Made by a program: the position numbers and the translations under genes. From Cymodocea nodosa (Eukaryota > Streptophyta > Magnoliopsida > Alismatales > Cymodoceaceae), in assembly GCA_036874045.1 (NCBI GenBank), contig JAZBRI010000011.1, positions 682,001-746,000 on the forward strand: 64,000 bases of DNA, read 5' to 3'. A model generated the notes under the pieces. That model made no database searches. It saw nothing but the letters and a program-made list of their open reading frames with translations, and was not told the origin of the DNA. Shown in pieces: positions 13,056 through 59,343 of this stretch (its first letter is position 1; each line of letters begins with the position of its first letter).

Positions 13056-13255
13056 ATCTTTTAACGAAATCAGTGGGGTTGTAAAGCTAATCCAATGAAT
13101 ACTCAGTATGTATTTTTACTGTATTTTACCGTTAAGATACTAAGAGGAGGATATGTGTGAACTTGACTGAATTTCGAGATTCTGTGCTGTAGTGAGTTAG
13201 TGTTTTATGAATGGAAATGAGGAATTTATACTCTATTGAGTGAATTTTTGATAAG
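13056..13255. other. Unassigned sequence between A1 and an LTR fragment
   Basis: About 200 bases with no ORF and no recognisable match elsewhere in the window. It may belong to the same LTR as the next segment. Confidence 0.4.
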
Positions 13256-15763: not shown

Positions 15764-15770
15764 AGTTTTA

Positions 15771-15788
15771 TAGCGCCGTTGCCTGGGA
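15771..15788 (+). promoter_or_regulatory. Gypsy-A2 primer-binding site (tRNA-Asp type)
   Basis: TAGCGCCGTTGCCTGGGA differs only slightly from TGGCGCCGTTGCC, the complement of the plant tRNA-Asp 3' end used by Athila/Tat elements. It lies seven bases after the LTR end. The pol ATG is only about 77 bases further on, leaving no room for a capsid gag at the usual place. Confidence 0.88.
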
Positions 15789-15864
15789 ATTAATATAAGC
15801 AACTGTTAGAGCTATTTTGTTTTAATAACTAGAGTGTTGTGTGTTTTCTTCTGTAATTGAGAAT

Positions 15865-18800: not shown

Positions 18801-20499
18801 GCTTTAGGAGCAGTGTTGGGATAGAAGATAGATAAATCTCCTAGAGTGATTCATTATGCAAGCAAAACCTTAAATGATGCTCAAGTTAATTACACAACTA
18901 CTGAAAAAGAACTATTAGCTATTGTGTTTACCTTAGAAAAGTTTAGATCATATCTGATTGGAGCTAAAGTAATAGTATACATGGATCATGCAGCTTTAAA
19001 ACACCTAATGAAGAAAAAAGAAACTAAGCCTAGATTGATCCGATGGATATTATTATTACAAGAATTTGATCTAGAAATTAAAGATAAAAAAGGATGTGAG
19101 AATGTAGTAGCAGATCATTTATCAAGATTATAAATAGAAAAATCAAATATTGAAATTAAGGATGATTTTCCTGATGAACAATTAATGACCATCAATACAA
19201 TGCCTTGGTATGCAGACATAGTTAATTACTTAGTTACTAGTTTAACACCTAAGGATTAGAATAGACAAGATAAGAAATTGTTTTTCTCAAGAGTAAAATA
19301 TTACTATTGGGAAGACCCATACTTATTTAAGAAATGTCTTGATATGGTTTTAAGGAGGTGTGTTCCAGAAACTGAATATCAGAGCATATTGTCATTCTGT
19401 CATGACTAAGCTTGTGGAGGGCATTTTGGCTCAGGGAAAACTGCTACAAAAATTCTACAATGTGGATTGTATTAGCCAACACTATTCAAAGATGCTCATA
19501 AATATTGCTTAAGTTGTTTAAGATGTCAACAAATAGGAAGAATATCAAAGAGGAATATGATGTCTCTTAATCCTATTGTTGAGGTTGAAATCTTTGATGT
19601 GTGGGGAATAGATTTTATGGGTCCATTTCCTATGTCTAATCAATTTAATTATATATTGTTGGGGGTGGATTATGTATCTAAATGGATAGAAGCTATTCCT
19701 ACAAAAACTAATGACAACAAAGTGATAATACAATTTATAAGAACCAATATATTTGCTAGATTTGGAATACCTAAAGCTATTATCAGTGATAGAGGAACTC
19801 ATTTCTATAATAGAAGTTTTGAAGCCTTAATGAAGAAATATGGAGTAAACCACAAAATTGCAACATCATATCATCCGCAAACAAGTGGACAAGTAGAAAG
19901 TGCACACAAACAAATTAAGTTAATCTTAGAAAAAGTAGTAAATCCTACTAGAACAGATTGGGCTAATAGATTGATAGATGCACTTTGGGCTTATAGAACT
20001 GCTTATAAGACAAGCTTAGGTATGTCACCTTTTAGGCTAGTATATGGAAAAAGTTGTCATTTACCTGCTGAAATAGAACATAAAGCTTATTGGGCATTAA
20101 AAACTCTGAACACTAATTTAAATCAAGATATTGAAAATAGGAAAATGCAATTAATTGAATTAGAAGAATTTAGAAATAAAGCTTACCCGAAGACTGTAAG
20201 AGAAAATGAAATTCTGGCATGATAGGAAAATTATTCTAAAAAGCTTTGAAATAGGACAAGAAGTATATCTGTATATGGCTAGACTCCATAACCATCTATG
20301 AAAATTAAGATCTAGATGGGTAGGACCTTACATAGTTCGAAATATTTATACCTATAAAGCTATTGAGATTGATAATCCTAAAAATCAGAATATATTTAAA
20401 GTAAATGGACAAAGACTTAGACTTATTCTAAAAATACCAAAAAGCTCCTTTGGAATTATAGAAGAAGTCAGAGTAGAAGACTACTCGAGCTTTACTTAG
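15865..20499 (+). pseudogene. Gypsy-A2 ORF1: CCHC knuckle, protease, RT, RNase H, integrase
   Basis: The start is the ATG at 15865 (MAYAYAQRFLKP), the first ATG after the PBS that is also kept in A3. A knuckle CEFCNSEGHNFSDC lies at 15913-15954, followed by a charged, coiled-coil-prone spacer to about 16800 containing LRSGIDIPPR. The retropepsin motif DLGAAINVMPSDIF starts at 17052. RT has LPFIDQML, MPFGLCNALATFQ and FMDD at 18342-18353. RNase H has MCDASNF and VVADHLSRL. Integrase has the CLRCQQ finger, [17 protein letters not shown] and [16 protein letters not shown]. The frame ends EDYSSFT. From 17076 to 20222 the frame is single but carries about nine stops, mostly TGG or CAR codons changed to TAG, TGA or TAA. 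The usual capsid domain is absent from the N-terminus. Confidence 0.92.
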
Positions 20500-21016
20500 T
20501 AAGAAATCAGTTTTTATTTTATTTTCATATTTATAAAAAAAAATTAAATATAAAAAATCGTTATGGTTCAACCGACTAGATCCATCGGTATGACCAGAAC
20601 ATAAAAAATCTATATTAAGTTTTAGTAAAAAAATTTCGGTCTGACCAAAACATAGTATCGGTTAAATCGATAAAAACAGAAAAAAAAACTATTATCTTAA
20701 TTATTATTATTATTATTTTATTATACCTATCTGTACCGGAAGTCCATTGAGTTATGCTTAACTAAACGAGCTTACTCCGTTGAGTCTTGCGTTAGTCAAC
20801 GAGCTTATTCCATTGAGTTAATTGTAACTCTACGGAGTACTGTAGCTAAGACAGCGGATGAGAAAGCAATAGTTGATTTGGGAAATAACCCAATTACCTG
20901 CCTAAACTTAGGGCTTATTTAAACTAAAACCTAGGGTTTTGGGGGCATTATCCAGCAAACCATTTAGAATTTAGAACAGTAAAGATCAGAGTGATTTTGT
21001 GCTATTGTGTAACTCC
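20500..21016 (+). other. Gypsy-A2 spacer between pol and PF20167 ORF
   Basis: Non-coding and collinear with 10454-11009. It has an AT-rich start, GGTTCAACCGA and CATCGGTATGACC motifs (20565-20660), then TTGAGTTA/TAACTCTACGG motifs (20740-20840). AG-ending acceptor-like sites lie near 20967-20980, before the ATG at 21017. Confidence 0.7.
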
Positions 21017-23240
21017 ATGATGAGGAAGATGACACCCGAGTTCTGGGAAGATGTAGTTGACATAGCACAATTTCTAAAAGAGTTAGAGGAATGGCACACA
21101 CGGTAGAAGATCAGGAATACAACAAGAAAAAAAGAGCTACAAAAGGTAGAATCAGAACTTTTCAACTTAAGGAAATTTTTGGTTGATTTGGGTATACAAA
21201 TACCCCAAATAGTAGAAACAAAAATAAAAGTAGCAATAGAAATTGCTTTAAGCAAAGAAAGAAAAATTAGGCCGAACAATGAAGTAGCCCTAGAGTTAAT
21301 CCAGCGTAAAGCCAGATTATAGTTTAAAAAGTGCATTGCTGGTCGTGCAAGGGGTGCAATAAGGCGATAACAACAAGCTGAGGAAGAACAAGAGAAGTCA
21401 GCTGTTGAAAGACCTCTTCCTAAGGAACAGTAGCTAGGACCTTCAGTTCCACCATTCAAGCCAAAAATGTCGAGGCCTTCTACTGAAGAAGAAAGAAGAG
21501 AATTTCAAGAACTGGTTCAAATAGGAAAAGACCAAGGAGAACCAGAAGAATTGGCAATAGCTATAGCACATCTGGTGTTTGATGCACAGTGCAAAAGAGG
21601 GTTGTAGAAAAATTGAAAGCCCAATATAAAATTAAAGTAGAACAACATCAAGAAGCTACTACTAGAACTACTATCAGATTTACTGCAAAAGAAGCTGAAG
21701 CTAGTACCTCGAGACTAGCAAATATTGAAAGAATTAAATAGGAAGAGCTAGTACCTGTGGCTCAAAGGCGTGTAGAGCCTTTATTTTTAGATTTAATCTC
21801 AAAAGAAGAAGAGGAAGACCAGGCACAATTAATTACACGAAGGAAAGGAAAAGAGATGGTGCCTGAGTGTCAAAAAGAGATTAAATTTGAAGCACCAATA
21901 TCAAAAGGGCCTGTAGAACCAATTTTTATAAACTTGCTATCCGATTCTGAGGAGGAGAAGGAGCAGTAGCAGCAAGAGCAAAGAAAAGAACAAAAATAGG
22001 CTGAAATTAGTCTACAGCCTGTACAAGAAGAAGAAACAGAAATTAGGGTAGAAACTGAATTGCCCGTGACTTCATCCCAATCTGCCACAGAATCAGAAAG
22101 AATAGTGACAGAGTAGATTGGTAGTCAAGAAGAAGAAGAAAGAATAGAAACTGAAGAAGAAGCTGAACGAAGCCATTTGGACAAAAATGACTTTGCAGAT
22201 TCCACTGAAGAGCAAGAAACTCATCAGCAATTTATGGAAAGAATTCAAGACATAGTGGAGAGTTCTGTCGGCTCGCCACCACAGACAAAAGCAAAATCAA
22301 AAATTCAGGAATCTGTAGAACATGTTCAAATGCAGCACATGGAGGAGGAAGATCAAGAACAAACCCCTTTAGAGCAACAAAGTCACATTCTTGACTCGAC
22401 TGAAGCAACAATTTTAAATGAAGTACATTTTTGGAGTCAGGAAGCTTATACTAAATACCAAGAAATTAGGGGTTATGATATTATATACAGTAGACCAGTA
22501 AATTGGGATGGAATGCAAGAAATCAAAGAATTATTTGAATTCCAAGGTCTACTGAATTCTATTTCTCAAGAAAGAGGGCATGCAGTATATGAAAATCTAG
22601 TGCCCTGTTTTTATGCCAATTTAAGAGAAGAAGAAGGAAAATTAATTTCCAACGTGGAGGAAGTTGATGTACAGATAACATTAGAGCTTCGCCACAACAT
22701 TTTTGGATTGAAGAATGAAGGAAAGGAAATTTTGGAAAGTACAATTGCTGTTGAATGGATAGAACAGGAAATCAAGGACAATTTGGCTATCAAGCCTGGT
22801 GTGCCTTTATTAAATAGACTGAAGCATTTAAATGGTAAAGCACACATGATAGCCAACATTTTGATTAAGAATATCTATCAACGACAAGGCCATGACATAG
22901 AACTGAGTCAATTTGTCAAATGGGCCACGTTTGTAGTTGTAAATAGAATTCCAATAAATTGGTCTGTAGTTTTTATCTCCAAGCTTAGAATAGTAAAGAA
23001 AAAATTATTTTATGGAGATTTGATTCCACTGTTGATGGTGGACTGTATCGATTTCACTAAATGGGCATAAAAAGAATCAAATCAAGAACCATTTCAATGA
23101 AAGAGTACAGAAATTTTGTAGCTGTAGAAATTGTTGCACCTTCTAGAGGCATTACAGGAGTCGTAGAGAAGATTAATCAATAAGAGCAACAATTAGAAAA
23201 ACTCCAGAAGGAAGTAGATGAACTTAGGAATAGAGGCTAA
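21017..23240 (+). pseudogene. Gypsy-A2 additional ORF: acidic/coiled-coil region plus PF20167 domain
   Basis: About 740 codons. Residues 1-45 include PEFWEDVVDIAQFLKELEEW. A lysine/glutamate-rich coiled-coil region follows (ELFNLRKFLVDLGIQIPQ, then NEVALELIQRKA). Next come a repeated acidic motif, VEPLFLDLISKEEEED then VEPIFINLLSDSEEEKEQ, and a Gln/Glu-rich linker. The PF20167 domain spans roughly 22420-23070 (YQEIRGYDIIYSRPVNWDGM, CFYANLREE, HNIFGLKNEG, LLNRLKHLNGKAHMIANIL). A coiled-coil C-terminus ends DELRNRG. There are frameshifts near 21600 and 23070 and several stops. The family's function is unknown; such ORFs occur next to pol in plant gypsy elements. The frequent CAG-to-TAG changes follow the Gln-rich composition. 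Confidence 0.8.
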
Positions 23241-23740
23241 ATTGTATTGTTTGTCTACTTGTATATAATTGTATGAAAAATATCTGATTTGATTGTAATG
23301 TAAATTGATTCATATGAAGGAATATAAATTTTCAAATATACTTTTCATGTGTGTTTCGAATGTGAAATGAATGAACTATATTGAATGTTATATAATTTGT
23401 GGAACATCATGAATGAATGTCTAACAGATTTACAATTTGCTGAATGATAGGAAAAAAATACAATCTGGAAAATATCTGCATGTTGTAAGGTAAAATGTAA
23501 ATTCTGCATAACATAAAATGACTTGCAAGTTAAATATTTATATAATGTTCAGATTTAAACGAATTTTGATTAGAATGATGCATTAATGACATAGATTTAA
23601 CTTTATTTCAGTTAGCAAAATGCAGAAAAAAAAACAGAGAAGTACATACGAGGAGTAAGTTTTAGAAGTAGAAGCAGTTGATTCGACTTCATTCGTCAAC
23701 AAATATTTACTGAATGGAAAGCTTTAGACTGGTATGTAAT
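23241..23740 (+). other. Gypsy-A2 3' spacer and junction with A3
   Basis: AT-rich and non-coding. It follows the A1 and A3 spacers to about 23668 (AAGTTTTAGAAGT). The last 70 bases (AGAAGCAGTTGATTCGAC onward) have no match in the other A copies and separate A2 from the end of the A3 LTR. Confidence 0.6.
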
Positions 23741-25748
23741 TATTTGTGTTTTCCTAGCACTACGCTAGAAAAGCTTGGATTTGTTACTTCTATTTTTACT
23801 TAGTTAATTTATCTTTGTGTCTATTCTTACTTTTAGAAGTAAACAAACAACCTTTAATACAATTTAGATATTAATTCCAATTTGTACTTTAACTGCAAGT
23901 GCATAGTGTCTATTGTATCAGTGTGTAAGTACAGGTCAATCCCATAGGGAATTGCTGAAGAACTAGAGAACTGTTCATTTGTTAACAATCAAATTTATAT
24001 ATTCAATAAGCTCTCCGTTGAATTACAGTTAACTCAACGGACTAAGTTCGTTGAGTTATGACTAACTCAACGAACTGACCTCGTGGACTTAGGTTAACTC
24101 CACGAGCTTGTCTTTTCTTTTTAGTACTGCTATTTACAAAGGAATTTAGCCAACCATTGGGCGATTCCATAGATTGTAAATAACATCAATTCAGCTCTTT
24201 AATGTTAGTTAACATTGGATTTATCATTAAGCAATACTAACATTCAGATAATTTAAATAGTAACCATTAAAATTTTTAAGTCTTTTGTACGAACCAATTT
24301 TAGTAAACTATAAAACTAAAATAAACATAAAACAATCACAACACTGACAAAGATAACATTAATCATGATACAACACAAACAATACAACACTCAAATACAA
24401 CATACAAACATAGATAAATTGTTTTTTTTTTTAATATGAACATGGAAATGGGCGAAAGGTGAAATGTAAAGTAATCTCACTTAACAGTAAATACTTCCGA
24501 CACTACTTGCAACATGATTACACCACTAAAAATTAAACCACTTACAATTCTGTCTTCTCTCCCTATAGAATCGCGAGTCCAGAATTGCAAGATGATCTTC
24601 TCTTCAACATACAAGCATCAACCTATAGCCAAGGCTAAAAGCTTTACGATCTCTTGAAATATGAGTCGGCGCTTGGTGAAAATGGCTTCCCTTCCCGCGA
24701 CACGATCACTCCTCATAGTGGTTGTCAAGCACTGTGTTTGGCTCGGAATCAACCCGACATCAGGCAAGTATCCTCATAAACCTCCGATGGTTGGTGATTA
24801 TGGTTGTGTGATGATTGTGGTGATGATGATTGTTGGTGTGGAACTTCAGAGAATTGCGACGCTCATCCTCCTCTACACACACTGTCTGCTCATCGATCAC
24901 ACCTCTTCTTTTTTTCTTCTTTTCTTTTATATTTCTTCAGTAGTAACTACTTCTGCTTGAATGGTCGGTTGGATTTCCTTCATTCGTATCAACGGTGATG
25001 ATTTCTTTCCCTATGCGATACGTGCAAACGTGATTTTTTCTCTTCCAACCGTCTGCTCCTACAACCGCTACAATGGCATTTTAGAAAATAGATTTAACTA
25101 TAAAATACGTGCAATAAAGAAATAAGCCGCTAACATAACACGTTACCTTAGTGTGTATTCATGTAACTCAACGCGTATAGTTATGCTAACTTAATGAGTT
25201 AAACATGTGCATCTCACGTGATATTCTAAAGCATTTAAATTCAACACATGCATAAATCTAACTATCCGATGTTCAGGAGCATTTCGGATACTTATAAACT
25301 TAACTATCCGTTGCTCAGATGCATTTCGGATAGTTACAAATAACTCACCGAAATATAACTTAAGTAAATCTACTAGATCTCGACACGTGTACTTCAGGAA
25401 ATAATAAACTATTCTCTCAAAACATAATTGTTCGGCAATTTAAACATAACTATCCGATACATATTCAGTTTGTTAGACATAATTGTCTGAATATGTTCGA
25501 TATGTTAAACATAACTGTTTGAAATATCAGAAAATTTGGATACTAAAGAATTTCCCAGCCTGCAACTTACCGACAGTTCATAAATGTACTAAATTAACAT
25601 TAATTCCCCCAATTTAAGTAGATTCTTCAATTAAAGCATATAACAGTGCAATTATAACATAATGGCTTAATTCTCATATGATAAGCTAAATATTATGCAA
25701 TTAACCATCATTTAACCATTAATAATATACACTTTTTCATTCTAAACA
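23741..25748 (-). repeat. Gypsy-A3 3' LTR (about 2.0 kb)
   Basis: In element sense it begins TGTTTAGAATGAAAAAGTG directly after the PPT and ends CACAAATA (the terminal CA has probably mutated to TA). It contains the same blocks as the A2 and A4 LTRs in reverse: U5-like segment near 23890-23960, TAACTCAACGGA motifs at 24020-24110, an antisense ORF at 24661-24960, the TAACACGTTACC/GTTAAACATGTG module at 25128-25230, and TAACTATCCGA motifs at 25260-25330 and 25450. Confidence 0.88.
24661..24960 (+). other. Conserved antisense ORF in gypsy-A LTR (copy A3)
   Basis: 99 codons antisense to the element, beginning MSRRLVKMASLPATRSLL, then WLGINPTSGKYPHKPPMVG. The first 50 or so residues match the ORFs at 14608-14805 and 46897-47106; the C-terminus differs because of frame changes. 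Function unknown. Confidence 0.35.
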
Positions 25749-25760
25749 CTTCCCCCATAC
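25749..25760 (-). promoter_or_regulatory. Gypsy-A3 polypurine tract
   Basis: In element sense GTATGGGGGAAG is directly followed by the LTR start TGTTTAG. It sits in the context GACTAGCAAAATTTAGG, which is repeated at A4 (46020-46046). Confidence 0.85.
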
Positions 25761-27498
25761 CTAAATTTTGCTAGTCCCTTAGCAAACTAAGATCTAATTA
25801 GTTAGTCTTTCAAAAAGTGCTAGAAATAATTCTTCCCCTTTGTTTTTCTTCTGTTTAGCATAAAAATATATTCTGTATGTTTCAGTAATCAACCTGCAAA
25901 TATACTTAGAATATATGCAAATTACATACAAAGTATATCATCATCACATAAGTGTTAATTATATTATCGTTTGTTCTTCTTTTCATCATCTGTCATCCTG
26001 AATTTTCTAATAAGATTTCTAGAAGAAATTTCAACAACATACGAATTAAAGTACAATCCAATTCAATCTGATTGAGATAAGTAGAATAAAGCATTGTATC
26101 TCCATTAAACAACTTCAAAAGTCAATTCTAGATTCATATTACAACAATTCTAGATAACAGAAAATATACTCGATTCATAAGATATCTGTATTTCACAAAA
26201 CACTTGTATCTTTTCAGAACAGTATATATATATATATTTTTTTCATACTTTAAAAGTTAATTTGATAAGCTTGAATCATACAAGAGTTTTCTAATGTACC
26301 CATGTAATGAGCTTTCAATCAACAATCCCAGATTTGAACAGGATCTTAGGTTGCCAGATTTCAATAGTCCTTGTTCAGGTCAACAATCCTTACATACCTA
26401 TTTACTCAAGTACAAAAGGCTCGTGATCAAACAAGTCAATAAACTCTCAAAATTTTTCCTTTTTTTTTTTTTTAAATCAAACTTCAAACACAAAACAAAA
26501 CATTAATCACATACTATATATGTATGTATTTCATTAATACAGATGCAGTAACACACCAATCTCATATAGTTCTGCTTCTATCATCTACTGAAAATATGAA
26601 TCCATAACAATAAGCTCATACTTTTTCTATAGTTTAATAAGATCTACACATAAATCATTCTACAAGTTCAATCAGTCAAATTAAATGTATCTCTAATCAT
26701 ATGTGTTTCATTTAATCTAGAATTCACATCTCACTTCTTTCAGGACTTTAGATAATTTACTGATTTTTTCATTAAGAATTCTGATTTCATTTTAAAATTG
26801 TGAAACTGTTAAACTCATGAAATTCATAAAAAACATAAGATACTATATCTAGATTTGCATAAATAGTAAATTCAATAGCATCTTATATAGACTTCTAAAT
26901 ATAACATTCAAGTAGTTTATAAAAATTTTATAGTCTCATTTATCAGATAGTTACAGCAAGTTCATAAAAATTTTCAATTTCCACAACTTTGCAATATCAT
27001 TTTAATTCCTTTAATTAACAAACTTACATGGTTGTTACTTTAATTACCTGCCCCCCATACCTACATTTTGCATTGTCCTCAATGTAAAAGATTTGACAAT
27101 AAGTACAGTAATTGAAGCAGGCATGAATATAGTTTTGTTTGATTTAAAATTCAGGATGAGTAATTAGTTACATACCTTGTTTCATTTATATCACCTTCTA
27201 TATATTCTGATTTTTGATTTTGAAAAACTTTTCATGCATAGATAAACGTAGACTATATAACAAAATAACACTTACAGATATTAATAAATTAGTGTCTTGT
27301 GTGGAACCCACGCTCCTATGCCTTTGGTGGCTCACAAGCAAGCTAGTTGGTTTCCTAGAACAGATATCAACAAACTGGATTGATATTTTGTTTTGTTTTT
27401 TTATTATAAAACAATCATGAAAACTTCAAAATTCTCTTCTTCTTCTTCTTTTTTAAAAATAAAATAAAATAAATGCAAAATACACACAAAATCACAGC
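25761..27498 (-). other. Gypsy-A3 3' untranslated region
   Basis: About 1.7 kb of AT-rich, non-coding sequence between the F-box ORF and the PPT. It matches A4 (44503-46030, inverted) and A5 (47991-49257) in order and content. It has a TA run at 26224-26240 and T-rich runs at 26456-26475 and 27440-27460. The G-tract motif at 27046-27090 is the only strongly conserved block. ORFs of 60-70 codons here look like chance. Confidence 0.75.
27046..27090 (-). promoter_or_regulatory. G-tract motif (second PPT-like site), A3
   Basis: In element sense: TTTACATTGAGGACAATGC, then AAAATGTAGGTATGGGGGGC. The same block recurs at 44739-44786, 48725-48770, 61039-61080 and 63346-63387, always downstream of the last ORF and well upstream of the LTR. 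It resembles the true PPT context (GCAAAATTTAGGTATGGGGG). Such a block is familiar in Athila/Tat elements; whether it primes plus-strand synthesis is not known to me. Confidence 0.7.
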
Positions 27499-28638
27499 TT
27501 AAGAACATGATTGAAAAGTAGAAACAAATGGAATAAATGTATCAGTCCAAGCAAACTTTTTAGGCATAGTTCTTTTTGCTATTAATTCTGTTTTAATGCA
27601 TTTCTTGTTCCTTCTTAATTTGTAAACATGTAATATATTATAAATTCCAAATACAAGTGTATTACCATTGATGATATGCAGTGCAGAAAGGGATCCTTTT
27701 TGGTTCCAAGGTAATGTAGTAGTTTCTATTTCTACATCTATTTTAATATACTCCTCTTCCCACTTTCATTCATTTATGTCTTCCATAATCCATATTTGAA
27801 ATTTCATCAGTTCATCCCACCATCTTATCAGACATAACGTAGGATCATCTTTTTCATTATACCACATTCCTATTTGAATTTCATTAAATTCTGCAGATGG
27901 TGGTTTAGCTATTTCACTCGGTATAGGTAAAATTTCTATATATTCATCATAACTGTCTATGCTCACTATGTATAAATCAGATCTATATGCTATTGATATC
28001 TTTGTGACTAGATATATATATCCATCAAGTATGACATGTGTTTGGTTAATTAATGATTTCTGTCCTAGATATATCATAATATTTTCATTCCAAGATCTAT
28101 TCAGAAAGTTATACACACTTAAGCGTAAATCTTCACCCCAATTTCCTGTAGGTCTCCAATAATATAATTTTTCAGGAATTGCAGAATTTTTATTAGAAAA
28201 TATTAAAGCTGACCCACAATTTATAGTTGGTGCTTCAAATCTATTAGGTCTTTCTATATTCCATTCTTCTCCTGTTATAGGATTTCTTATCAAAATATTA
28301 GGTAATAATAAACTTGCATACCTTGGTCTCGTACTGTATATGATTAATCCTTCATCTATCCCTATAATATGATTTATTCCTTCTAATGTATTGGGTGGAA
28401 TTCTAGTAGTTTCTTCCATAGCAAGATATTCATGGGTATTTGAACTACGATTAAATGACCTCCATATGAATCCATCTCTAATCTTAGTCATTTTTGCAAC
28501 TTGTAGTCCCTGAAAATATTTTTCTTCAATACAGTCTTTAATTTCTTTTGATACACAACACAGCCTGCACAAATCTTTAGCTGACAAGTTACTTAGTACT
28601 TCCCTTAGTGCATCCAACAATAATTGCATCAATTCCAT
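27499..28638 (-). pseudogene. F-box protein ORF carried by gypsy-A3
   Basis: 380-codon frame, sense to the element, between gag and the PPT. The N-terminal F-box covers residues 4-42 (LLLDALREVLSNLSAKDLCR, then LCCVSKEIKDCI). A C-terminal F-box-associated-like region follows with ILIRNPITGEEWNI, YYWRPTGNW and SDLYIVSIDSYDEYIEILP. F-box proteins link targets to SCF ubiquitin ligases through SKP1. One TGA at the NE-stop-KW position (near 27766) interrupts the frame; the A5 copy has TGG there, so this is a Trp-to-stop change, and the frame then continues to TAA at 27499. A polypyrimidine acceptor ending at 28648 lies ten bases before the ATG. This looks like a captured host gene kept as an element ORF. 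Alternatively it is a host gene trapped between elements, but the second copy with the same neighbours argues against that. Confidence 0.82.
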
Positions 28639-28647
28639 TTGTTGATT

Positions 28648-28668
28648 CTGTAAAACACAAACAAAAAT
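28648..28668 (-). promoter_or_regulatory. Possible 3' splice site before the F-box ORF
   Basis: In element sense the run TTTTTGTTTGTGTTTTACAG ends just before AATCAACAAATG, where ATG is the F-box start. It has the polypyrimidine-plus-CAG shape of a plant acceptor and could yield a spliced mRNA for this distal ORF. No donor is assigned. Confidence 0.45.
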
Positions 28669-28822
28669 TTAGTAGAGACAAAAATTAACATAACTACTGC
28701 ACATCCTCATGGAGTTAAGGCATAACTCAACGGACTAAGTTCGTTGAGTTAAAAATTAACTCTGCGATTAACTATAAATAAAAACATATATACATACAGA
28801 TAGGTTCTTCAAATATGTTGCT

Positions 28823-30184
28823 TCATTTAGCTACCCTCCCAAAAGAGGTATCAATTTCATTAACAGTTCTATTGATAGGATTAGGTATTGCTTGTATTGG
28901 CAATCCTCTAGTAGGTCTAACATCCATTGGTTCCTTCTGTCTAAGTGGTAAATTTCTATTCTGATTTTGAATTGCAGCATTTCCAAATAAAAAATCTAGA
29001 CGATTGTTTAATTGTTGGATTATCTTTTCTAATTTCTCTATTCTAGATCCTTGTTCAATTAATGCTTCATAACTTATGTTCTTATCATTTATATTTTCTC
29101 CTCCCTGGAAATTGTTGTTTCTCCAAGATAAATTCAGGTGATTTCTCCAATTAGGATGATAAGAATTTCCCAAGTTATCTCTCTGGTTTCTAGCATAAAT
29201 AATATCTAAGTCATTTATGTTTGCATTCTTTTCTGCTAGCTTTTGATTTAATGATAACTCTTCTATTTTCTTTGTTAATTCATTTAATTTCACCTCAAGC
29301 ATAGTACTTGAATCTATTTCATGTATTCCTCTTGGCAATATTTTTTTATCTGCAATAGCTTCAGCCGAGTTTTCCCACTGTGTAGTTCTTTTTGCAAAGT
29401 TTTCTAAATATGCCCATGCTTCTTCATTGCATAACTTTAAAAATCCATTTTGACAAGTAGATTATAATAAAGATTTTGTTGAAACATCTATGCCTTCATA
29501 AATTATACCTATTAATTGTGCTTTACTCATTGCATGATGTGGACATTGAGTCAATAAATCTTTAAATCTTTCAAAATATTTCCAGAATGATTCACCCTAT
29601 TTTTGGCTACACATTAATATTTCTTTCTTCTTTTTAATCATTTGATGTGTTGGATAATATTTTTCCAGAAAAACAAAGCAAAATTCAGTCCATGTAGAAA
29701 TTAAATCAGGCGACAGAGTATATAACCATCTCTTAGCTGTGTCTTTTAAAGAAAAAGGGATATATCTAAGTTTAATAGCATCTATACTCATGTTCGGCAT
29801 TTTCATCATTTGACAAACTTCGTTAAATTCTCTAAGGAAATAATAGGCATCCTCTCTTTCTAATCCATGAAAATGTGGCAATTGACTAATATAATTAGAT
29901 TTCAATTCAAACCTATCTCCCTCAAAGTTTGGCAATCGAATACATGAAGGTTCATCAACTAATTCAGGATATAGAATCTCTCCTAATGGTTTTTCTACTG
30001 GAGCAACCATTTCTACGTTCTCTTTTAAAGAAAGGTTAGATACATCCCAAAGAATTTTGTTAAAGTTCAGTTCAAAAAATTTTTCAATATTCCTGTACGA
30101 TGAAAATTCCTAGATATGTGTTCTTACTAATCGTTTAGTGCTAGGAGAACGGGTCCATATGTTCTTCCAGTTCCTCCAACGCAT
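28823..30184 (-). pseudogene. Gypsy-A3 gag (capsid-type), located downstream of integrase
   Basis: 454-codon frame starting at the ATG at 30184 (MRWRNWKNIWTRSPSTKRL) and staying in one frame to the stop at 28823 despite several internal stops (for example after LMCSQK at 29597). The retrotransposon gag domain (PF03732 type) covers roughly residues 60-200: LVDEPSCIRLPNFEG, FELKSNYISQLPHFHGL, IKLRYIPFSLKDTAKRWL and FLEKYYPTHQMIKKKKEIL. The Athila-type motif YHPNWRNHLNLSWRNN follows, then a coiled coil and GLPIQAIPNP. No CCHC knuckle is present; the family's knuckle sits in the 5' ORF. It would form the particle shell. Its position after the PF20167 ORF is opposite to the canonical gag-pol order. 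Confidence 0.88.
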
Positions 30185-31021
30185 TCTCCTTTCTTTTAAA
30201 AGTACTGGTAACTCGTAAATAACATTTTGTTTTATATATATACTACACATCCATAAAGTGAATAAATCTCGTTGCAAGAATGTGTCTTACAATGTGCATC
30301 ATGGTTCCTATTTTTATGGGTTTGTGTACCACTACTCATTTCAAATTTTGGTAACCACTAAACCGACGAAGTTTCGTTCATGGTTAAAAGAATAACCGTT
30401 CTGCTTAATCCACGAACTAACCTCGTTGAGTTACAGATAACTCAATCGAATACAGTCGGTTACTATTGCTAACTCCATGGACTAACTTCGTTGAGTTACA
30501 GATAACTCAACGGAGTGACCTTATACTATATTGCTGACCTCGTGGAGTTACATTTAACTCAACAGACTTACTTCGTTGAGTTAACACTTGGAAACTTCTA
30601 AGTTTTACTCTCGTAAGTTCCTCTCTGTTCTTTTTTTTCTTTTTTTTTCATTCTGCTAACTGAAATAAAGTTAAATCTATGTCATCAATGCATCATTCTA
30701 ATTAAAATACGTTTAAATCTGAACATTATATAAAGATTTAACTTGCAGGTCATTTTATGTTATGCAGAATTTACATTTTACCTTACAACATGCATAAATT
30801 TTTAAGCAGTTATCTTGTCATTCAGCAAATTGTAAATCTGTTAATATTCATTCTTAAAGTTTCACAATGACATAATATTCAATAAATTCTATTCATTTCA
30901 CATCCAAAACATGTATGAAAATTGCATCTGAAAAATTTACATTCATTAATATGAATCAATTACATTACAAGTACATCATACAATTTCATAAAATTTTACA
31001 CAAGTAGACGAACAATACAAT
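30185..31021 (-). other. Gypsy-A3 spacer between PF20167 ORF and gag
   Basis: Non-coding, 0.84 kb. TAACTCAACGA/TCGTTGAGTTA motifs cluster at 30410-30600 and a T-rich run lies at 30630-30650. It is collinear with A1 12299-13055 and A2 23241-23668. No LTR, PBS or TSD is visible. Confidence 0.7.
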
Positions 31022-33249
31022 TTAATCTCTATGCCTAAGTTCATCTACTTCCTTCTGGAGTTTTTCTAATTGAAGCTCTAATTGATTAATCCTCTCTACT
31101 GCTCTTGTAATTCCTCCAAAAGGTACAGCTAATTCTGCAGCTACAAAATTTTTGTATTTTTTCACTGAAATGGTTCTAGATCTGATCCTTTTTGATGTCC
31201 ATTTCGTGAAATCAATACAGTCCACCATCAGCAGTGGAATCAAATCTCCATAAAATAATTTCTTCTTCACTATTTTCAACTTGGAGATAAAAACTGCAGA
31301 CCAATTTATTTGGATCTTATTTACAACTGCATATGTGGCCCATTTAATAAATTGACTTAATTCTATATCATGGCCCTGTCGTTGATAGATGTTCTTAATC
31401 AGAATGTTAGCTACCATGTGTGCTTTACCAGTTAAATGCTTCAATATGTTTAATAATGGCATACCAGGATTGATAGCTAAACAATCCTTAATTTGCTGTT
31501 TAGTCCATTCAACTACAGTTGTATCTTCCAAAATTTTTGTTCCTTCATTCTTTAAACCAAAAATGTTGTGGAGAAGCTCTACTATTATCTATGCATCAGC
31601 TTCCTCCACGTTTGAAATTAATCCTCTTTCTCCTTCTCTTAAATTTACATAAAAACAGGACACTAAATTCTCATATACTGCATGCCCTCTTTCTTGGGAT
31701 ATAAATTGCAATAGACCTTGGAACTCAAATAAATCTTTGATTTCTTGCATTCCATCCCAATTTACTAATCTACTATAAATAATGTCGTAACCCCTTATTT
31801 CTTGATATTTGGTATAAGCTTCCTGACTACAAAAATGTACTTCATTCAAAATTGTTGTTTCAATCGGGTCAGGAAGGTGACTTTGTTGCTCTAGAGGGGT
31901 TTGCTCTTATTCTTCCTCTTCTATAGGCTGCATTTGAATATTTTCTACAGATTCCTGAATTTCTGCTACTGCTTCTGTCTATGGTGGTGAGCTGGCAGAA
32001 CTCTCCACTCTATCTTGAATTCCCTCCATAAATTGCTGAAGAGTTTCTTGTTCTTCAGTGGAATTTGTAAAATTATTTTTGTCCAAATGGCTTCTTTCAA
32101 CCTCTTCATTTTCTACTCTTTCTTTTTCCTCCTAACTACCAATCTGTTCTGTTATTGTTCTTTCTGATTCTGTAACAGATTGGGATGGAGTCACGGGCAA
32201 TTCAGTTTCTGCCCTAATTTCTATTTCTTCTTGTACAAACTGTAGACTAATTTCAACCTGATTTTTTTCTTTTCTTTGCTCATATTGCTGCAGCTCCTCT
32301 TGTTCCTCCTCAAAATTGGATAACAGGTTAATAAAAATTTGCTCCACAGGCCCTGTAAAAGTTGGTACTTCAGATTTAATTTCTTCATATTCAAGCACTT
32401 TCTCTTTCCTTTCTTTTTTTCGATTAGTTGTGCCTGTTCTTCCTCTTCATCTTCTGAAATTAAATCCACAAAAGTAGGCTCTACAGGCCTTTGAGCCATA
32501 GGTACTGGCTCTTCCTGTTTAACTCTTTTTATAACTACTAGTCTCGAAGGACTAGCCTCTCCTGCAGCACTTGATTTAGTTGCTGCTTGATACTATTCAA
32601 CCTTTATTTTATATTGGGCCCTTATCCTTTCTTCGACCCTTTTTTTCTTAATGGTATCATATAAAATATGCACCTTAGTCATAACTATCTCTTGAGTATC
32701 ACCTTGGTCTCTTGCTGTCTTGACCAAGCTAGTAAACTCTTTCTCTTCTTCTTCAGTTCTCGACTAAGCAAATGCAACTCGTGGCAATGGTTTTGTTGGC
32801 TGAACTTGAGGTACTGACTGTTGTTCTTTAAGAACAGGTCTTTCAGTAGTTGGTTCCTCCTGTTCTTCAGTTGCCTCTTCTTCATTTTCTTTCCTTCCTT
32901 GCTCCCAGATCGCCCATTTAGCTCGTCTACAGATTCGTCTTTTGAACCCGAGCTGAGACTTACGTTGGATTAATTCTAGGGCTACTTCATTGTTTGATCG
33001 TATCTTTCTTTCTTTACTTACTGCAATTTCAGTTGCCACTCTAATTCATGTCTCCATTATCTATGGTATCTGTATTTCTAATTCAACCAAAATTTTCCTC
33101 AAGTTAAAGAGTTCTGATTCTAACTTTTGTAGCTCTTTCTCTCTTGTTGTATTTTTGATCTTCTGCCTCGTGTGCTATTCTTCAAATTCCTTCAGAAACT
33201 ATGCGGTGTCCACTACCTCTTCCCAGAATTCAGGCTACATCTTTCTCAT
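31022..33249 (-). pseudogene. Gypsy-A3 additional ORF with PF20167 domain
   Basis: Same architecture as the A2 copy and nearly full length (about 2.2 kb). The N-terminus is MRKM, a stop, then PEFWE, at 33249. A coiled-coil region follows with NEVALELIQRKSQLGFKRR. The acidic repeats VEPTFVDLISEDEEEEQ and VEQIFINLLSNFEEEQEEL lie at 32300-32480. The PF20167 domain spans about 31200-31850 (YQEIRGYDIIYSRLVNWDGM, SCFYVNLREGE, LLNILKHLTGKAHMVANIL). The C-terminus ends KEVDELRHRD. It lacks the 0.9-kb deletion seen in A1. It is broken by several stops and at least two frameshifts. Confidence 0.8.
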
Positions 33250-33846
33250 CGTGAAGTTACACAACAGCACAGAATCGCTTTGATTTCTACTGTTCTAGAT
33301 TCTAAATGATTTGTCGGATAATGCCCCCAAAACCCTAGGTTTTAGTTTAAATAAGCCCTAAGTTTAGGCGGGTAATCGAGTCATTTCCCGAACCAACTAT
33401 TACTATTTTATCTGAGGTCTTAGCTATAGTACTCCGTTGAGTTATAGTTAACTCAACGGAATAGGCTCGTTGACTAACTCAAGACTCAACGAAGTAAGCT
33501 CGTTGAGTTAAGCGTAACTCAATGGACTCCCCATACAAGCAAATATAATAATAAAAATATTACAAAGAATAGTTTTTCTATTTTTTTACCGATTTAACCG
33601 ATTCTATGTTTCGATTAGACCTAAAATATATATATTTTTTATTTTATTTTTTCTTTTGGTTGAACCGATACTATGTTTTGGTAAAACCAACATTTTTCTG
33701 AAAATTAATATACATATTTTTTATGTTTCGGTCATACCGATGGATCAGTCGGTTGAACCGCAACGATTTTTCTATTTTATATATATTTTTAATGTGTTTT
33801 ATATATATACATATATATATATATAAACATAAAAACTGATTTCTTA
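33250..33846 (-). other. Gypsy-A3 spacer between pol and PF20167 ORF
   Basis: Non-coding mirror of 10454-11009 and 20500-21016. TAACTCAACGGA motifs occur at 33430-33530, GGTTGAACCGATAC and CATACCGATGGATC motifs at 33580-33770, and a TA-rich run at 33800-33830. Confidence 0.7.
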
Positions 33847-35424
33847 TTAAGTAAAGCTCGAGTAGTCCTCTACTCTGACTTCTTCCATAATTCCAAAGGA
33901 GTTTTTTGGTGTTTTCAAAATAGGTTTAAGTCTTTGTCCATTTACTTTAAATATATTCTGATTTTTAAGATTTTCAATTTCAATAGCTCCATAAGGATAA
34001 ATATTTCGAACTATGTAAGGTCTTGCCCATCTAGATTTCAATTTTCCTAGATGGTTATGGAGTCTAGCCCTATAAAGATATACTTCTTGTCTTATTTCAA
34101 AGCTTTTAGGAATAATTTTTCTATCATGCCAAAATTTAATTTTTTCTTTTTCTCTTACAATCTTCGAATAAGCTTCATTTCTAAATTCTTCTAATTCAAT
34201 TAATTACATTTTTCTATTTTCAGCTGCTTGATTTAAATTAGTGTTCAGAGTTTTTAATGCCCAATAAGCTTTATGTTCTATTTCAGCAAGTAAATAACAA
34301 CTTTTTCCATATACTAGCCTAAAAGGTGACATACCTAAGCTCATTTTATAAGTAGTTCTATAAGCCCAAAGTGCATCTATCAATCTATTAGCCCAATCTG
34401 TTCTAGTAGGATTTACTACTTTTTCTAAGATTAAGTTAATTTGTTTGTTTGCACTTTCTACTTGTCCACTTGTTTGTGGATGATATGATATTGCAGTTTT
34501 GTGGTTTACTCCATATTTCTTCATTAAGGCTTCAAAACTTCTATTACAGAAATGAGTTCCTCTATCACTGATAATAGCTTTAGGTATTCCAAATCTGGCA
34601 AATATATTTGTTCTTATAAATTGAATTACCACTTTGTTGTCATTAGTTTTTGTAGGAATAACTTCTATCCATTTAGAGACATAATCCACCCCCAACAATA
34701 TGTAATTAAATTGATTAGACATAGAAAATGGACCTATAAAATCTATTCCCCACACATCTTCCAAATTTGCATTACTTTCATGATGTTTTTGTATATCATT
34801 TTCATGATTATGATCTTCAATTGGTTTTAGTTTTAAAGTGCATTCTTTAAATTCTCTTGCATTCGTATTTTCTGTTTGCTGTATATTTTACAAATTATGC
34901 AGGTTTATAACATTATAGTTTTCATTGTCTTATTGCATAACTTGTATTTTCATTGTATATTCGTCTAATGCTTTTAATTTTCTTTCCAAATCATCTAATT
35001 CCATTGCATTCAATTTTTGATCAATTTTCATTATGGTTTTTTCAGTTTCGTAAATTATATCCTTTTTAGGTTCTGAATATGCTTCCTTATAGTTTAATTG
35101 ATTGACTTCTTGTTGTTGACACACAAAGTATTCCAGTTTGTCTAGTTTTTTCTCTATACTATGCTCCAGTCTGTCATACCTATCCCAAACTTCAGTGTCT
35201 CTCAACATATTACACATTCTATACTAACCATCAGTTGGGTAAACTATAGGATTCTCATACTCGGATCTATTATACTGAAGATAATTCATTTGTTGTTCAT
35301 GGGATCTAACCATCTGTAAATGTCTCAGTTTCAAACAGTCAGAAAAGTTGTGTCCTTCAGAATTGCAGAATTCACATATGATAATTACAGGTTTCAGAAA
35401 TCTTTGAGCATAAGCATATGTCAT
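33847..35424 (-). pseudogene. Gypsy-A3 ORF1: CCHC plus integrase core, PR-RT-RH deleted
   Basis: Begins at the ATG at 35424 (MTYAYAQRFLKP) about 96 bases after the PBS. The knuckle CEFCNSEGHNFSDC and the coiled-coil spacer follow. Near 34750 the sequence jumps directly into the integrase core ([44 protein letters not shown]). It ends EDYSSFT at 33847. Against A2, about 3.05 kb (protease, RT, RNase H and the integrase zinc finger; A2 16528-19600) is missing, and both sides of the join share GATGTGTG-like sequence. This copy could not replicate on its own. Confidence 0.88.
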
Positions 35425-35519
35425 ATTCTCAAATACAAAAGAAAACACACAACTCTGGATATTAAAATGAAACAACTCTATCAGTTATTTATATTAATTC
35501 AATTCCATTCAATTCAATT

Positions 35520-35536
35520 CCCCAGCAATAGCGCCA
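35520..35536 (-). promoter_or_regulatory. Gypsy-A3 primer-binding site (tRNA-Asp type)
   Basis: In element sense TGGCGCTATTGCTGGGG, a close variant of the Athila-type tRNA-Asp PBS, lies seven bases after the LTR end. Confidence 0.85.
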
Positions 35537-35543
35537 TAAAAGT

Positions 35544-36065
35544 TGTTTGTGCTTTCCCAGCACTACACTAGAAAAACTTGGATTTGTTACTTCTATTTTT
35601 ACTTAGTTAATTTATCTTTATGTCTATTCTTACATTTAGAAGTAAACAAACAACCTTTAATACAATTTAGATATTAATTCCAATTTGTACTTTAACTGCA
35701 AGTGCATAGTGTCTGTTGTATCAATGTGCAAGTATAGGCCGATCCCACAAGGAATTGCTGAAGAACTAGAGAACTGTTCTTTTGTTAACAATCAAATTTA
35801 TATATTCAATAAGCTCTCCGTTGAATTACAGTTAACTCAACGGACTAAGTTCGTTGAGTTATGGCTAACTTAATGGACTAACCTCGTGGACTTAAGTTAA
35901 CTCCACGAGCCTGTCTTTTCTTTTTAGTACTGCCATTTGTAGAGGAATTCAACCAACCATTGGGCAATTCCACAGATTGTAAATAACATCAATTCAGCTC
36001 TTTAATGTTAGTTAACATTGGATTTATCATTAAGCAATACTAACATTCAGATAATTCAAACAGTA
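35544..36065 (-). repeat. Gypsy-A3 5' LTR, truncated by Copia-2
   Basis: Only the last 0.52 kb of the LTR (element sense) remains. It matches 23741-24270 of the A3 3' LTR. It breaks at AGTAA near 36065, where Copia-2 LTR sequence begins. Confidence 0.85.
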
Positions 36066-37665
36066 AAAAGCAGCAAGACTATCAGATAGTTAGAAGGATC
36101 ATATTCTCGAATTTTATAAAGCCTTTAGAGAGTTATTTAATCATATAGTTAAGGAGATTGAATGATCGGATAATTAAGGAGTTAGCTATTCGGAAGCTTA
36201 AAGGACTTTCCAAAGAGTTACAGGTATAACTATCTGAAAGTTAAGTCATTCAATAAACCACGTGCAGAAATACAGAATGGAAGCTTAAAAGACTTGTTGG
36301 AGAGTTAGATAACTATCCGAGTTTTCTTTTCGGAGAGTTAGATAACTATTCGAGTTTTTCGGTAAGTTATAGGCATAACTTTCTGGAACTTAAGTCATTT
36401 TATTACGCACGTGCAAAATGGAGAAGCTGGCAATTGAAAGCTTAAAAGGGAAAATCGGAGAGTTAGATAACTATCCGAAATTTCAAAGAGAGTTTCGGTA
36501 AGTTACAGTTTAACTATCTCAAACTTAAGTTAGTGAATTTCCCACGTGCAGAAATCCAAACAGATGCTCAAATGGGTCTTTGGAGAGTTAGAAAGATAAC
36601 TATCCGAAATTTCAAAAGAGTTTCGGTGAGTTACAATTTAACCATTCGAAACTTAAGTCATTGAATTTCCCACATGCAGAATTCCAGAGAGGCTCAAATA
36701 AGTTTTCGGAGAGTTAGAAAAATAACTATCCAAAATCCTGAAGCATTTCAGTGAGTTACAAGGATAACCTTCCGAAACTTAAGTCAGTCCTTTATGCACG
36801 TGCTAACTTAAAGCAATCGAAAAGTTGACAGAGGCAAACTATCTGACAAGTATATAACTGTTCGGTGAGTTACAGTTATAAGTATCCGATTGGATGATAG
36901 CTCACATTTAAATATTCTGAAATCCTTCCTAGTAGTAAAGGTTAAGTGATCTTTTAGTGAGTTACAGTTACTCTTCGGAGAGTTGCATAGCTAACCATCC
37001 AAAAGAACAGGAAAATCGATAAGATATCTTGAAACGATTTTCTGAGCGGTCACTTGCCGTATTGGGACTTGATCCTAATCAAGTACAGTAGAATACATCC
37101 GTTGGAGGAAAATATGATTGTTATACATATCAAGTATACATTCAAAATACAGACAACGGATATACGGCAGAGATACACAGTGAGCTACACTAAAAATTCC
37201 AATTACACTCAAGTCTGCAAACAATGAAGAATATTTAGAAGATCTATTGTAGAAAAAGCTCTTGCGCCGAAACTCTGATTGAAGGTTTAAAGTTGTTGGT
37301 TCGTGGCTTCAACCTGAAAGCTACACACAGTGTTGGTTTGAGTTTCGACCTGAAAACTCTAGAGGTTGGTTTATTGAAGTTTTTACCTGAAAACTTCTGT
37401 GTAGTTGGTTCTTTCTTTGACCTGAAAGCAAGTGTGTAAGTGTTGAAACACTTAGTGAAGCCCAAGTGAATCTTGGGGGTGGACTAGCCAAATTGGTGAA
37501 CCACCTAAAAAATTTACTGTGTGTTTCTTATCTCTGTTGATTTGCATTATATTAGTTTCATCTCATTACATTTCTGTTGAATCATTCGATTCAACATTAA
37601 AAGAATTTTAAAACTACACACTTTCACCATTTACCTCCCCTCTAGTGAGCCTATCGATCCTAACA
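36066..37665 (+). repeat. Copia-2 5' LTR with 125-145-bp internal repeats
   Basis: Equivalent to 42952-44502 of the 3' LTR; the first part of the LTR is missing. Positions 36220-36800 contain about five tandem units of 125-145 bases. Each has CGGAGAGTTA, TAACTATCCGAAA, TTTCGGTGAGTTA, ACTTAAGTCA and CACGTGCAGAA. The end ATCCTAACA is two bases before the PBS. Confidence 0.88.
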
Positions 37666-37667
37666 AT

Positions 37668-50394: not shown

Positions 50395-50467
50395 CTACTG
50401 TGATTCTGTATTCATCAGCATAAAACAAAATTAAAAAGATAAATTAAAATAGCTACTTACGTCTACT

Positions 50468-52652: not shown

Positions 52653-52670
52653 TGGCACCGTTGCCAGGGA
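52653..52670 (+). promoter_or_regulatory. Gypsy-B primer-binding site (tRNA-Asp type)
   Basis: TGGCACCGTTGCCAGGGA matches the Athila/Tat tRNA-Asp PBS with two or three differences. Confidence 0.88.
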
Positions 52671-59069: not shown

Positions 59070-59343
59070 GACAATAGTTTTTCTTTTTCTTTTCTTTTCT
59101 TGTATAGTTATTCTATTCCTCTTATTTCTTTTCTGTTATGCATTTTGATTCATGCTACTCACTCATCTAACATGCAGGTTAGACTTGGAGATTGCTTCAT
59201 TGTAAGTGTTATTCTCCTCTACACTTGCTATTTCAATATCTTTCTATTGCATGCAACCTTCTGGTTGGGTGAGAGATCGCACTTCTAGGCTTGTGAGAAG
59301 TACATCCATAGAAGAGGGTAGAACATTAGGAGAACCATTAGGA
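59070..59343 (+). other. Gypsy-B spacer between integrase and gag
   Basis: 275 bases with a pyrimidine-rich tract (59082-59145). An acceptor-like CTAACATGCAG ends at 59177 and a donor-like TGTAAGTG lies near 59200. This could mark splicing for gag expression. There is no LTR or PBS here, so gag and pol belong to one element. Confidence 0.55.

What the first reader, a model, noticed from the sequence alone, without database searches (positions are those of the whole stretch)
28823..35424. Gypsy-A has gag downstream of pol (permuted gene order)
Seen: in A3 the capsid-type gag (28823-30184) lies after integrase and the PF20167 ORF, all on one strand between one PBS and one PPT. In A2 and A3 the first ORF starts only 77-96 bases after the PBS and begins with a CCHC knuckle, so there is no capsid at the 5' end. 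Known: Ty3/gypsy elements are normally gag-PR-RT-RH-INT. Inference: the capsid part of gag moved to the 3' side, leaving the knuckle fused to protease. This changes how Gag could outnumber Pol; it would need a separate or spliced mRNA.
Basis: partly seen in the sequence, partly recalled or inferred. Interest (0 to 1): 0.92.

Follow-up and report, generated by a model that had tools for sequence, protein, structure and literature searches.

The report
Plant retrotransposons with gag placed last
In this plant-like genome a group of virus-like jumping genes carries its shell-protein gene (gag) after the enzyme genes instead of before them, a reversal of the usual layout, which raises the question of how such an element makes enough shell protein.

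Summary
A3 reads PBS, knuckle ORF, integrase, PF20167-like ORF, gag, F-box gene, PPT, LTR, but is a decayed copy without PR-RT-RH. Gypsy-B in the same window is complete (TSD TCTAC, LTRs 94.5% alike) with gag right behind integrase. Two complete family-A copies elsewhere, with perfect TSDs, read LTR-PBS-knuckle ORF-PR-RT-RH-INT-PF20167-gag-F-box-PPT-LTR. In the copies read from five families (A, B, B', C, E) gag follows integrase. A conventional gag-PR protein matched 67 of 67 scored places by its gag half only; among separately found PR and gag places, gag lay downstream of 9 proteases and upstream of none. A conventional relative read by the same pipeline shows gag first. The permuted integrases fall in one supported clade, together with one integrase of unknown order. 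Gag is a free-standing ORF with its own start; Pol begins with its own CCHC knuckle. Likely mechanism (inferred): Pol from the LTR transcript, Gag from a separate mRNA, in family A from an internal promoter (LTR-like repeats, conserved TATA box). No RNA evidence was available; no printed precedent was found in the library searched.

The parts
35543..36066 (-). A3 5' LTR, remnant only
   Evidence: 93.7% to 23740-24263; ends at 36066 where the LTR of another element (36059-37667) starts
35519..35536 (-). A3 primer binding site (tRNA-Asp type, name recalled)
   Evidence: TGGCGCTATTGCTGGGGA right after the 5' LTR
35224..35484 (-). A3 first ORF = start of Pol; first Met at 35424; CCHC knuckle CEFCNSEGHNFSDC
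33847..34887 (-). A3 integrase core (34204-34887) and C-terminal part (33847-34203)
   Evidence: PF00665 E 7.3e-16 for the core; homologous to A2 and B integrase
33431..33540 (-). block like the promoter-near LTR part, before the PF20167-like ORF
   Evidence: 75% to LTR 35903-35816, E 8e-12
31022..32592 (-). PF20167-like ORF of A3, broken
   Evidence: 79% to the A2 ORF over 32092-31196; A2 ORF hits PF20167 at E 4e-4, below the family cut-off
30404..30600 (-). LTR-like blocks before gag
   Evidence: 77% to LTR 35907-35819, E 3e-12; the 9-mer AACTCAACG occurs 32 times in the window, 0.16 expected
30230..30242 (-). TATA box before gag (TATATATATAAAA)
   Evidence: same alignment place is TATAAATA in 5 of 5 other A-like subfamilies
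28823..30184 (-). A3 gag (capsid type), downstream of integrase; one frame with two stops
   Evidence: PF03732 E 2.4e-7; frame
28705..28767 (-). LTR-like block before the F-box gene
   Evidence: 75% to LTR, E 6e-5
27499..28668 (-). F-box gene carried by the element (ORFs 27766-28668 and 27499-27765)
   Evidence: PF00646 E 5.4e-8; F-box downstream of gag in 27 of 30 gag loci
25749..25765 (-). A3 polypurine tract
   Evidence: TTTAGGTATGGGGGAAG directly before LTR start TGTTTAG
23741..25748 (-). A3 3' LTR, followed by ATTAC
14024..23740 (+). A2: LTR 14024-15704, knuckle ORF 15829-16173, PR 16926-17660, RT, RH, INT 19476-20222, PF20167 ORF 22117-23070, gag leader to 23740, where A3 is inserted
   Evidence: Pfam, tblastn, alignment to a complete copy
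50467..52646 (+). Gypsy-B 5' LTR, preceded by TSD TCTAC (50462-50466)
   Evidence: 94.48% to 64217-66390; ends and TSD
52653..52670 (+). Gypsy-B primer binding site TGGCACCGTTGCCAGGGA
54630..55367 (+). Gypsy-B start of Pol with a degenerate knuckle; the knuckle is intact in a distant relative, L068 (37% to it)
55368..59069 (+). Gypsy-B PR, RT (PF00078 E 1e-17), RH (PF17917 E 7e-35), INT (PF00665 E 4e-9)
   Evidence: PR has no Pfam hit there and is named by similarity to A2 PR
59251..60645 (+). Gypsy-B gag behind integrase, broken by stops; own Met (59251) and own knuckle CIACGILGHIMEEC
   Evidence: PF03732 E 1.9e-6; knuckle; Met
49261..50406 (-). F-box gene of a third A-like copy (D), into which Gypsy-B inserted; the C-terminal half of D's gag lies beyond B at 66542-66937, outside the window

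Best explanation
This is an old lineage of Athila-like Ty3/gypsy retrotransposons in which gag lies 3' of pol: LTR-PBS-[knuckle-PR-RT-RH-INT]-gag-PPT-LTR; family A adds a PF20167-like ORF before gag and an F-box gene after it. Shown: the order in three complete proviruses and in copies of five families, one supported integrase clade (with one row of unknown order), a free-standing gag ORF with its own start, a knuckle at the N-terminus of Pol. Inferred: gag was duplicated behind integrase once, and the 5' capsid was then lost. Pol is translated from the LTR-driven full-length RNA and reaches the particle through that RNA, helped by its own zinc knuckle, rather than as a Gag-Pol fusion. Gag is made in excess from a separate mRNA: in family A from an internal promoter (LTR-like repeats plus a TATA box), in the other families from an internal promoter or by splicing.
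For: Gypsy-B is complete, with TSD TCTAC on both sides and INT then gag. Two A copies fetched in full (chosen from 40 integrase places because RT lay upstream), TSDs ATCCT and AGGCT, carry the whole order. P20167 lies upstream in 27 of 30 gag-selected A loci, A3 included. Of 6 places fetched from 150 PF03732 places, 5 have INT and 1 has P20167 upstream. 2 of 2 places fetched from the 67 have INT upstream. A conventional gag-PR protein (P0001, LPSQ at residue 423, TLRSG at 453): 67 of 67 scored places match it only up to residues 417-443. 81 PR places against 217 gag places within 9 kb: gag downstream of 9, upstream of 0, opposite strand at 1, none listed near 71. Control: L065/L066 show gag first in one frame. 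One starred clade 98/96. Gag dN/dS 0.14-0.33 in the 5 of 19 between-family pairs that could be estimated. TATA box and LTR-motif blocks before gag in A and 5 of 5 other A-like subfamilies. Knuckle-LRSG-PR in open Pol ORFs of L067 and L068.
Against: No RNA, protein or particle data. No LTR-like block was found before gag of Gypsy-B; B', C and E were not tested for it because their LTRs were not fetched, so the internal promoter is not shown to be general. The clade takes in P0035, a 289-aa integrase of unknown gene order; holding it out is not rejected (AU p 0.079), and gene order is known for only one of the 26 other rows (L065). In two A copies the Pol knuckle is damaged (C6 copy L051 and L027). 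Only a small part of several thousand candidates was scored and fewer were read. The dS values behind the gag ratios are near saturation. The plant is unnamed, and order in its relatives is untested.
Confidence: 0.8

Rival explanations
1. Gag is made from a spliced subgenomic mRNA of the LTR transcript, as reported for env-class plant elements, not from an internal promoter.
For: Gag occupies the place of the env-like gene. In B the roughly 180 bases between INT and the first gag Met are pyrimidine-rich with acceptor-like CAG. In A a donor-like GTATGTAATTAAT is identical in all six subfamilies aligned and an acceptor-like stretch precedes the F-box ATG. Splicing of env-class plant elements is cited in the reference list of PMC11963269.
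Against: In A and 5 of 5 A-like subfamilies a TATA box and LTR-motif blocks lie between the PF20167-like ORF and gag. The derivatives with pol parts missing that I inspected (L027, L044) do not join at GT-AG.
Confidence: 0.35
2. The 3' gag is an added passenger and the real Gag comes in trans from conventional elements; the elements are gag-defective parasites.
For: Gag-less plant elements are known (BARE-2, cited in PMC11963269), and Arabidopsis Athila has many partial, recombinant elements (PMC2410132 passages).
Against: No gag-PR arrangement among 67 of 67 scored places; 9 downstream against 0 upstream; gag is constrained between families where this could be estimated.
Confidence: 0.08
3. 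A local nest, rearrangement or assembly error put gag behind integrase in A3.
For: The window is heavily nested and A3 is truncated and internally deleted.
Against: Complete copies with perfect TSDs on other contigs, five families, PR-gag spacing of 4.15-4.46 kb in 7 of 10 pairs (10 pairs from 9 PR places).
Confidence: 0.02
4. Gag is translated from the full-length RNA by internal initiation, without a second mRNA.
For: Gag has its own start codon.
Against: The gag start lies thousands of bases from the cap; a TATA box precedes it in A.
Confidence: 0.1

Closest known systems
Athila lineage of plant Ty3/gypsy (Diaspora, PMC1142308 passages; Neumann et al. 2019, PMC6317226 passages)
   Same: integrase of family E is 46-72% identical to the 120 listed hits (plants where named, apart from one bacterial label; most unnamed); homologous Gag, PR, RT, RH; PBS of the same look; 5-bp TSD; long LTRs; extra ORF behind integrase
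   Different: Diaspora has gag-Zn-PR-RT-INT in one ORF; here gag is a separate ORF behind integrase and Pol starts with a knuckle
Foamy viruses (PMC3196705, start of abstract seen in the listing)
   Same: Pol made apart from Gag, packaging helped by viral RNA (inferred here)
   Different: foamy viruses keep gag before pol (recalled); not related as a family
Grande retrotransposon accessory gene with its own promoter (cited in PMC11963269 reference list)
   Same: a gene in the 3' internal region transcribed from its own promoter
   Different: there an accessory protein; here gag itself
Non-autonomous and recombinant Athila of Arabidopsis (PMC2410132 passages)
   Same: gag-only or gag-env elements and recombination between families, a possible source of a second gag
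   Different: no pol-gag order is described in the passages seen

Membership tests
Ty3/gypsy LTR retrotransposon | LTRs, PBS, PPT and target site duplication | tested here: met
   3 of 3 complete copies (B, C6, C12) have LTRs, PBS, a purine-rich tract before the 3' LTR and 5-bp TSDs
Ty3/gypsy LTR retrotransposon | pol order PR-RT-RH-INT | tested here: met
   B, A2, C6 and C12 copies
Ty3/gypsy LTR retrotransposon | gag upstream of protease | tested here: not met
   gag downstream of INT in the copies read from five families and downstream of 9 PR places, upstream of 0
Athila lineage | integrase groups with Athila integrases | tested here: inconclusive
   in a tree with 26 other integrases, one of them the conventional L065; the protein sources do not label lineages, so the name Athila is recalled from the look of the element
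Athila lineage | tRNA-Asp primer site | tested here: inconclusive
   TGGCGCCGTTGC(C/T)GGGG and TGGCACCGTTGCCAGGGA after the 5' LTR; tRNA identity recalled, no tRNA gene compared
Athila lineage | no second RNase H (unlike Tat) | tested here: inconclusive
   only RT_RNaseH-type hits in the pieces scanned and the RH and INT frames overlap in L053; no dedicated search for a second RNase H
Athila lineage | Athila ORF-1 (PF03078) | tested here: not met
   not hit by the ORFs scanned; found in 16% of Athila according to PMC6317226, so not defining
Foamy-virus-like separate Pol | Pol made apart from Gag and packaged through RNA | not testable with these tools
   own Met and N-terminal knuckle seen; no RNA or particle data

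The most novel reading that the evidence does not exclude
A single ancient event placed gag behind integrase and founded a pol-first clade of LTR retrotransposons that has multiplied for a very long time (synonymous sites near saturation between families), with Pol carrying its own RNA-binding knuckle and Gag made from its own transcription unit: a replication strategy in which the usual Gag-to-Gag-Pol ratio control (frameshift, readthrough or proteolysis) is replaced by separate promoters.
Probability: 0.55. Interest if true: 0.92.

Novelty: new variant of a known kind. Interest (0 to 1): 0.86.

Why it matters
Gag before pol is treated as a fixed feature of LTR retroelements and underlies how Gag outnumbers Pol. 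A thriving lineage with pol first would show that the order can be broken, offers a natural experiment on Gag:Pol ratio and Pol packaging, and means that annotation tools which demand gag-PR-RT-RH-INT order would call these elements incomplete.

Tried and rejected
Rejected: that A3 is a chance nest (complete copies with TSDs); that the 94-base segment missing before A3 gag is a lost intron (its ends in the other copies are not GT-AG); that the pol-less or pol-reduced derivatives L027 and L044 are spliced retrocopies (joins not GT-AG); that A2 naturally lacks gag (A3 sits in its gag leader). The B_PR hit beside P20167 in L031 was taken as noise. The one family-A integrase place with a gag place downstream (C21) does not count: the gag belongs to L027, which has its own LTR between the two.

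Dropped while checking: an earlier reading as a test of the gag tail. Its query begins just behind TLRSG, so it only supplies protease places.

Led nowhere: F-box relatives (no hit at E 1e-5 among 962 candidates); viral contigs; PDB by sequence. A model of the 170-aa gag piece (mean pLDDT 74) has no PDB match at E 0.001 or better, but its first ten matches are all capsids, of Rous sarcoma virus or dArc1. The plant was not identified. Literature: searches listed no title or abstract start that reports gag behind integrase; four of them found no paper at all, and the five papers (HIV, Ty1, MPMV by title) were not read. The library lacks most subscription papers and preprints.
Full report
WHAT WAS CHECKED. 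The window is part of an unnamed 374.6-Mb genome (G000:C11:682001-746000) with many nested LTR elements. On the minus strand, A3 reads: 5' LTR remnant, PBS, a first ORF with a CCHC knuckle, integrase, a PF20167-like ORF, gag, an F-box gene, PPT, 3' LTR. The gag call rests on PF03732 (E 2.4e-7) and on 35-52% identity to ten gag proteins from outside sources. A3 is decayed: PR-RT-RH are missing, the 5' LTR is cut, and gag has two stops.

GYPSY-B IS THE STRONGER CASE IN THE WINDOW. It runs from 50467 to 66397, just past the window end: LTRs 94.48% alike over 2174 columns, TSD TCTAC on both sides, a PBS after the 5' LTR and a purine-rich tract before the 3' LTR. Inside it are RT, RH and INT and then gag (PF03732 E 1.9e-6), whose first Met lies about 180 bases behind the INT frame. 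It too has stops. A and B are 67-70% alike in DNA over the aligned pol parts. B sits inside a third A-like copy, D, in which gag precedes the F-box gene.

COMPLETE COPIES ELSEWHERE. Of 40 family-A integrase places listed (of 3969 first-look candidates) ten loci were cut, and two with RT upstream (C6 and C12) were chosen for longer stretches. Both read LTR-PBS-knuckle ORF-PR-RT-RH-INT-P20167-gag-F-box-LTR on one strand, with TSDs ATCCT and AGGCT and LTR pairs 94.2% and 94.7% alike. Their frames are not intact (for C12), and the knuckle of the C6 copy is damaged.

COUNTS. The gag DNA search scored 40 of 4846 first-look candidates, and 30 loci were cut. P20167 lies upstream in 27 of 30 and F-box downstream in 27 of 30; these include A3 itself. 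Without P20167: L025 and L029 (nothing recognised upstream on the same strand) and L027 (LTR and knuckle ORF directly before gag, a derivative without pol). Without F-box: L025, L028, L032. Of 8 PF20167 loci, 5 show gag downstream and 3 show no gag within the short locus. The PF03732 search scored 150 of 4640 candidates. Six were fetched: INT upstream in 5, P20167 in 1. Two of the 67 places were fetched, both with INT upstream. The ten loci around family-A integrases were too short to reach gag.

TESTS NOT STEERED BY A. P0001, a 666-aa protein from an unnamed source in which gag runs into protease (LPSQ at residue 423, TLRSG at 453), matched 67 of 67 scored places (of 12198 candidates) only in its gag part, ending at residues 417-443. 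A query from the linker behind TLRSG through protease of a conventional element gave 81 protease places (of 6932 candidates). Setting these against 217 gag places (67, 150; a few are the same copy), within 9 kb, gag lay downstream on the same strand of 9 protease places, upstream of 0, on the opposite strand at 1; 71 had none listed nearby. Seven of the ten pairs are 4.15-4.46 kb apart. For 39 family-A integrase places (window copy left out) one gag place lay downstream, but it belongs to L027, which has its own LTR in between, so it does not count.

POSITIVE CONTROL. L065 and L066, plant-like sequences inside two bacterial assemblies, carry a relative with integrase 65% identical to family E. 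The same annotation finds gag, PR, RT, RH, INT in that order in one open frame. The pipeline can thus see the usual order.

ONE CLADE. In a tree of 34 integrases the eight rows of the permuted families (A three, B one, B' one, C two, E one) fall together with P0035 at 98/96; P0035 (289 aa, 1168-base contig) has unknown order. Holding the eight alone is not rejected (AU p 0.079). Of the 26 other rows only L065 has a known gene order. Between families integrase synonymous divergence is 1.2-2.5 in the 13 of 14 pairs that could be estimated, so the lineage looks old. Gag dN/dS is 0.14-0.33 in the 5 of 19 between-family pairs that could be estimated; 14 were saturated, and the five have dS of 1.8-3.1, so the ratios are rough. 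Gag in its new place has probably been kept by selection. The F-box gene looks less constrained (0.54 against D, 0.90 within A).

ANATOMY OF THE SWITCH. In conventional relatives gag ends with an LPSQ stretch followed by TLRSG and protease in one chain (P0001, P0012 and L065). Here the free gag ORF ends soon after the matching stretch (L063, L064). Pol starts with Met, a CCHC knuckle, an LRSG motif, then protease in the open frames of L067 and L068, whose families were not settled; in the C12 copy a stop separates the knuckle from LRSG. Gag keeps a knuckle in B, B' and E; none was found in 30 of 30 A gag loci scanned nor in the C loci L055-L057. I read this as duplication of gag, loss of the 5' capsid, and later loss of the 3' knuckle where the Pol knuckle remained; this is inference.

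HOW GAG MAY BE MADE. In A3 blocks resembling the promoter-near part of the LTR precede each of the three 3' genes; their core 9-mer occurs 32 times in the window against 0.16 expected. Five other A-like subfamilies (L002, L005-L008) have the motif and a TATAAATA box at the same alignment place before gag, and A has TATATATATAAAA there. A donor-like GTATGTAATTAAT downstream of the box is identical in all six. I favour an internal promoter in A. In B, B' and C the INT-gag gap is a few hundred bases and poorly conserved between the five sequences aligned, so splicing and an internal promoter cannot be told apart. There is no RNA evidence.

COMPARISON WITH PRINT. Diaspora (PMC1142308, passages) has gag, zinc finger, PR, RT, INT in one ORF. 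Neumann et al. (PMC6317226, passages) describe extra ORFs in the group but, in the passages seen, no gag behind integrase. PMC2410132 (passages) reports gag-only and gag-env Athila and recombination between families, a possible route. PMC11963269 (passages and part of the reference list) cites Grande's own-promoter gene, spliced env-class elements and BARE-2. PMC2577118 (passages) notes one CCHC array as usual for Athila/Tat. Foamy viruses separate Pol from Gag (PMC3196705, abstract start in a listing). Searches listed no earlier report.

LIMITS. One genome, unnamed; a few dozen copies read out of thousands of candidates; searches return the best-scoring copies; expression and packaging are inferred.

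Noticed in passing
27499-28668 (-), 49261-50406 (-): Family A carries an F-box gene behind gag in 27 of 30 gag loci; an acceptor-like TTTTGTTTGTGTTTTACAG lies just before its ATG in A3. Possibly a captured host gene; a search for relatives found none.
   Followed up: partly
window-wide, 32 sites: AACTCAACG/CGTTGAGTT motif, 32 against 0.16 expected, in A LTRs and before each 3' gene of A3, often as facing pairs that could form hairpins.
   Followed up: partly
about 61049 and 63357: Gypsy-B has PPT-like ggacaatgca..ggtatgggggg stretches besides the tract before its 3' LTR (just outside the window); repeat 60737-61090 and 63052-63397 (69%).
   Followed up: no
53168-54369: The 2-kb Gypsy-B leader holds two diverged tandem copies, with AACCTTCCGA-like motifs.
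   Followed up: no
14024-15704: One LTR seems to serve as the end of A1 and the start of A2; A1 has a stretch at 13243-13456 that is 91.6% alike to Gypsy-B 63488-63710.
   Followed up: partly
L027, L044: Internal-deletion derivatives without pol or parts of it; joins are not GT-AG.
   Followed up: yes
L065, L066: Plant-like retrotransposon sequences, 99.6% alike, in genome assemblies named Solirubrobacter and Geminicoccus; probably contamination.
   Followed up: partly
22117-23070 (+), 31022-32592 (-): The PF20167-like ORF of family A matches its Pfam family only weakly; its function is unknown. Its dN/dS within A-like copies is about 0.3.
   Followed up: partly
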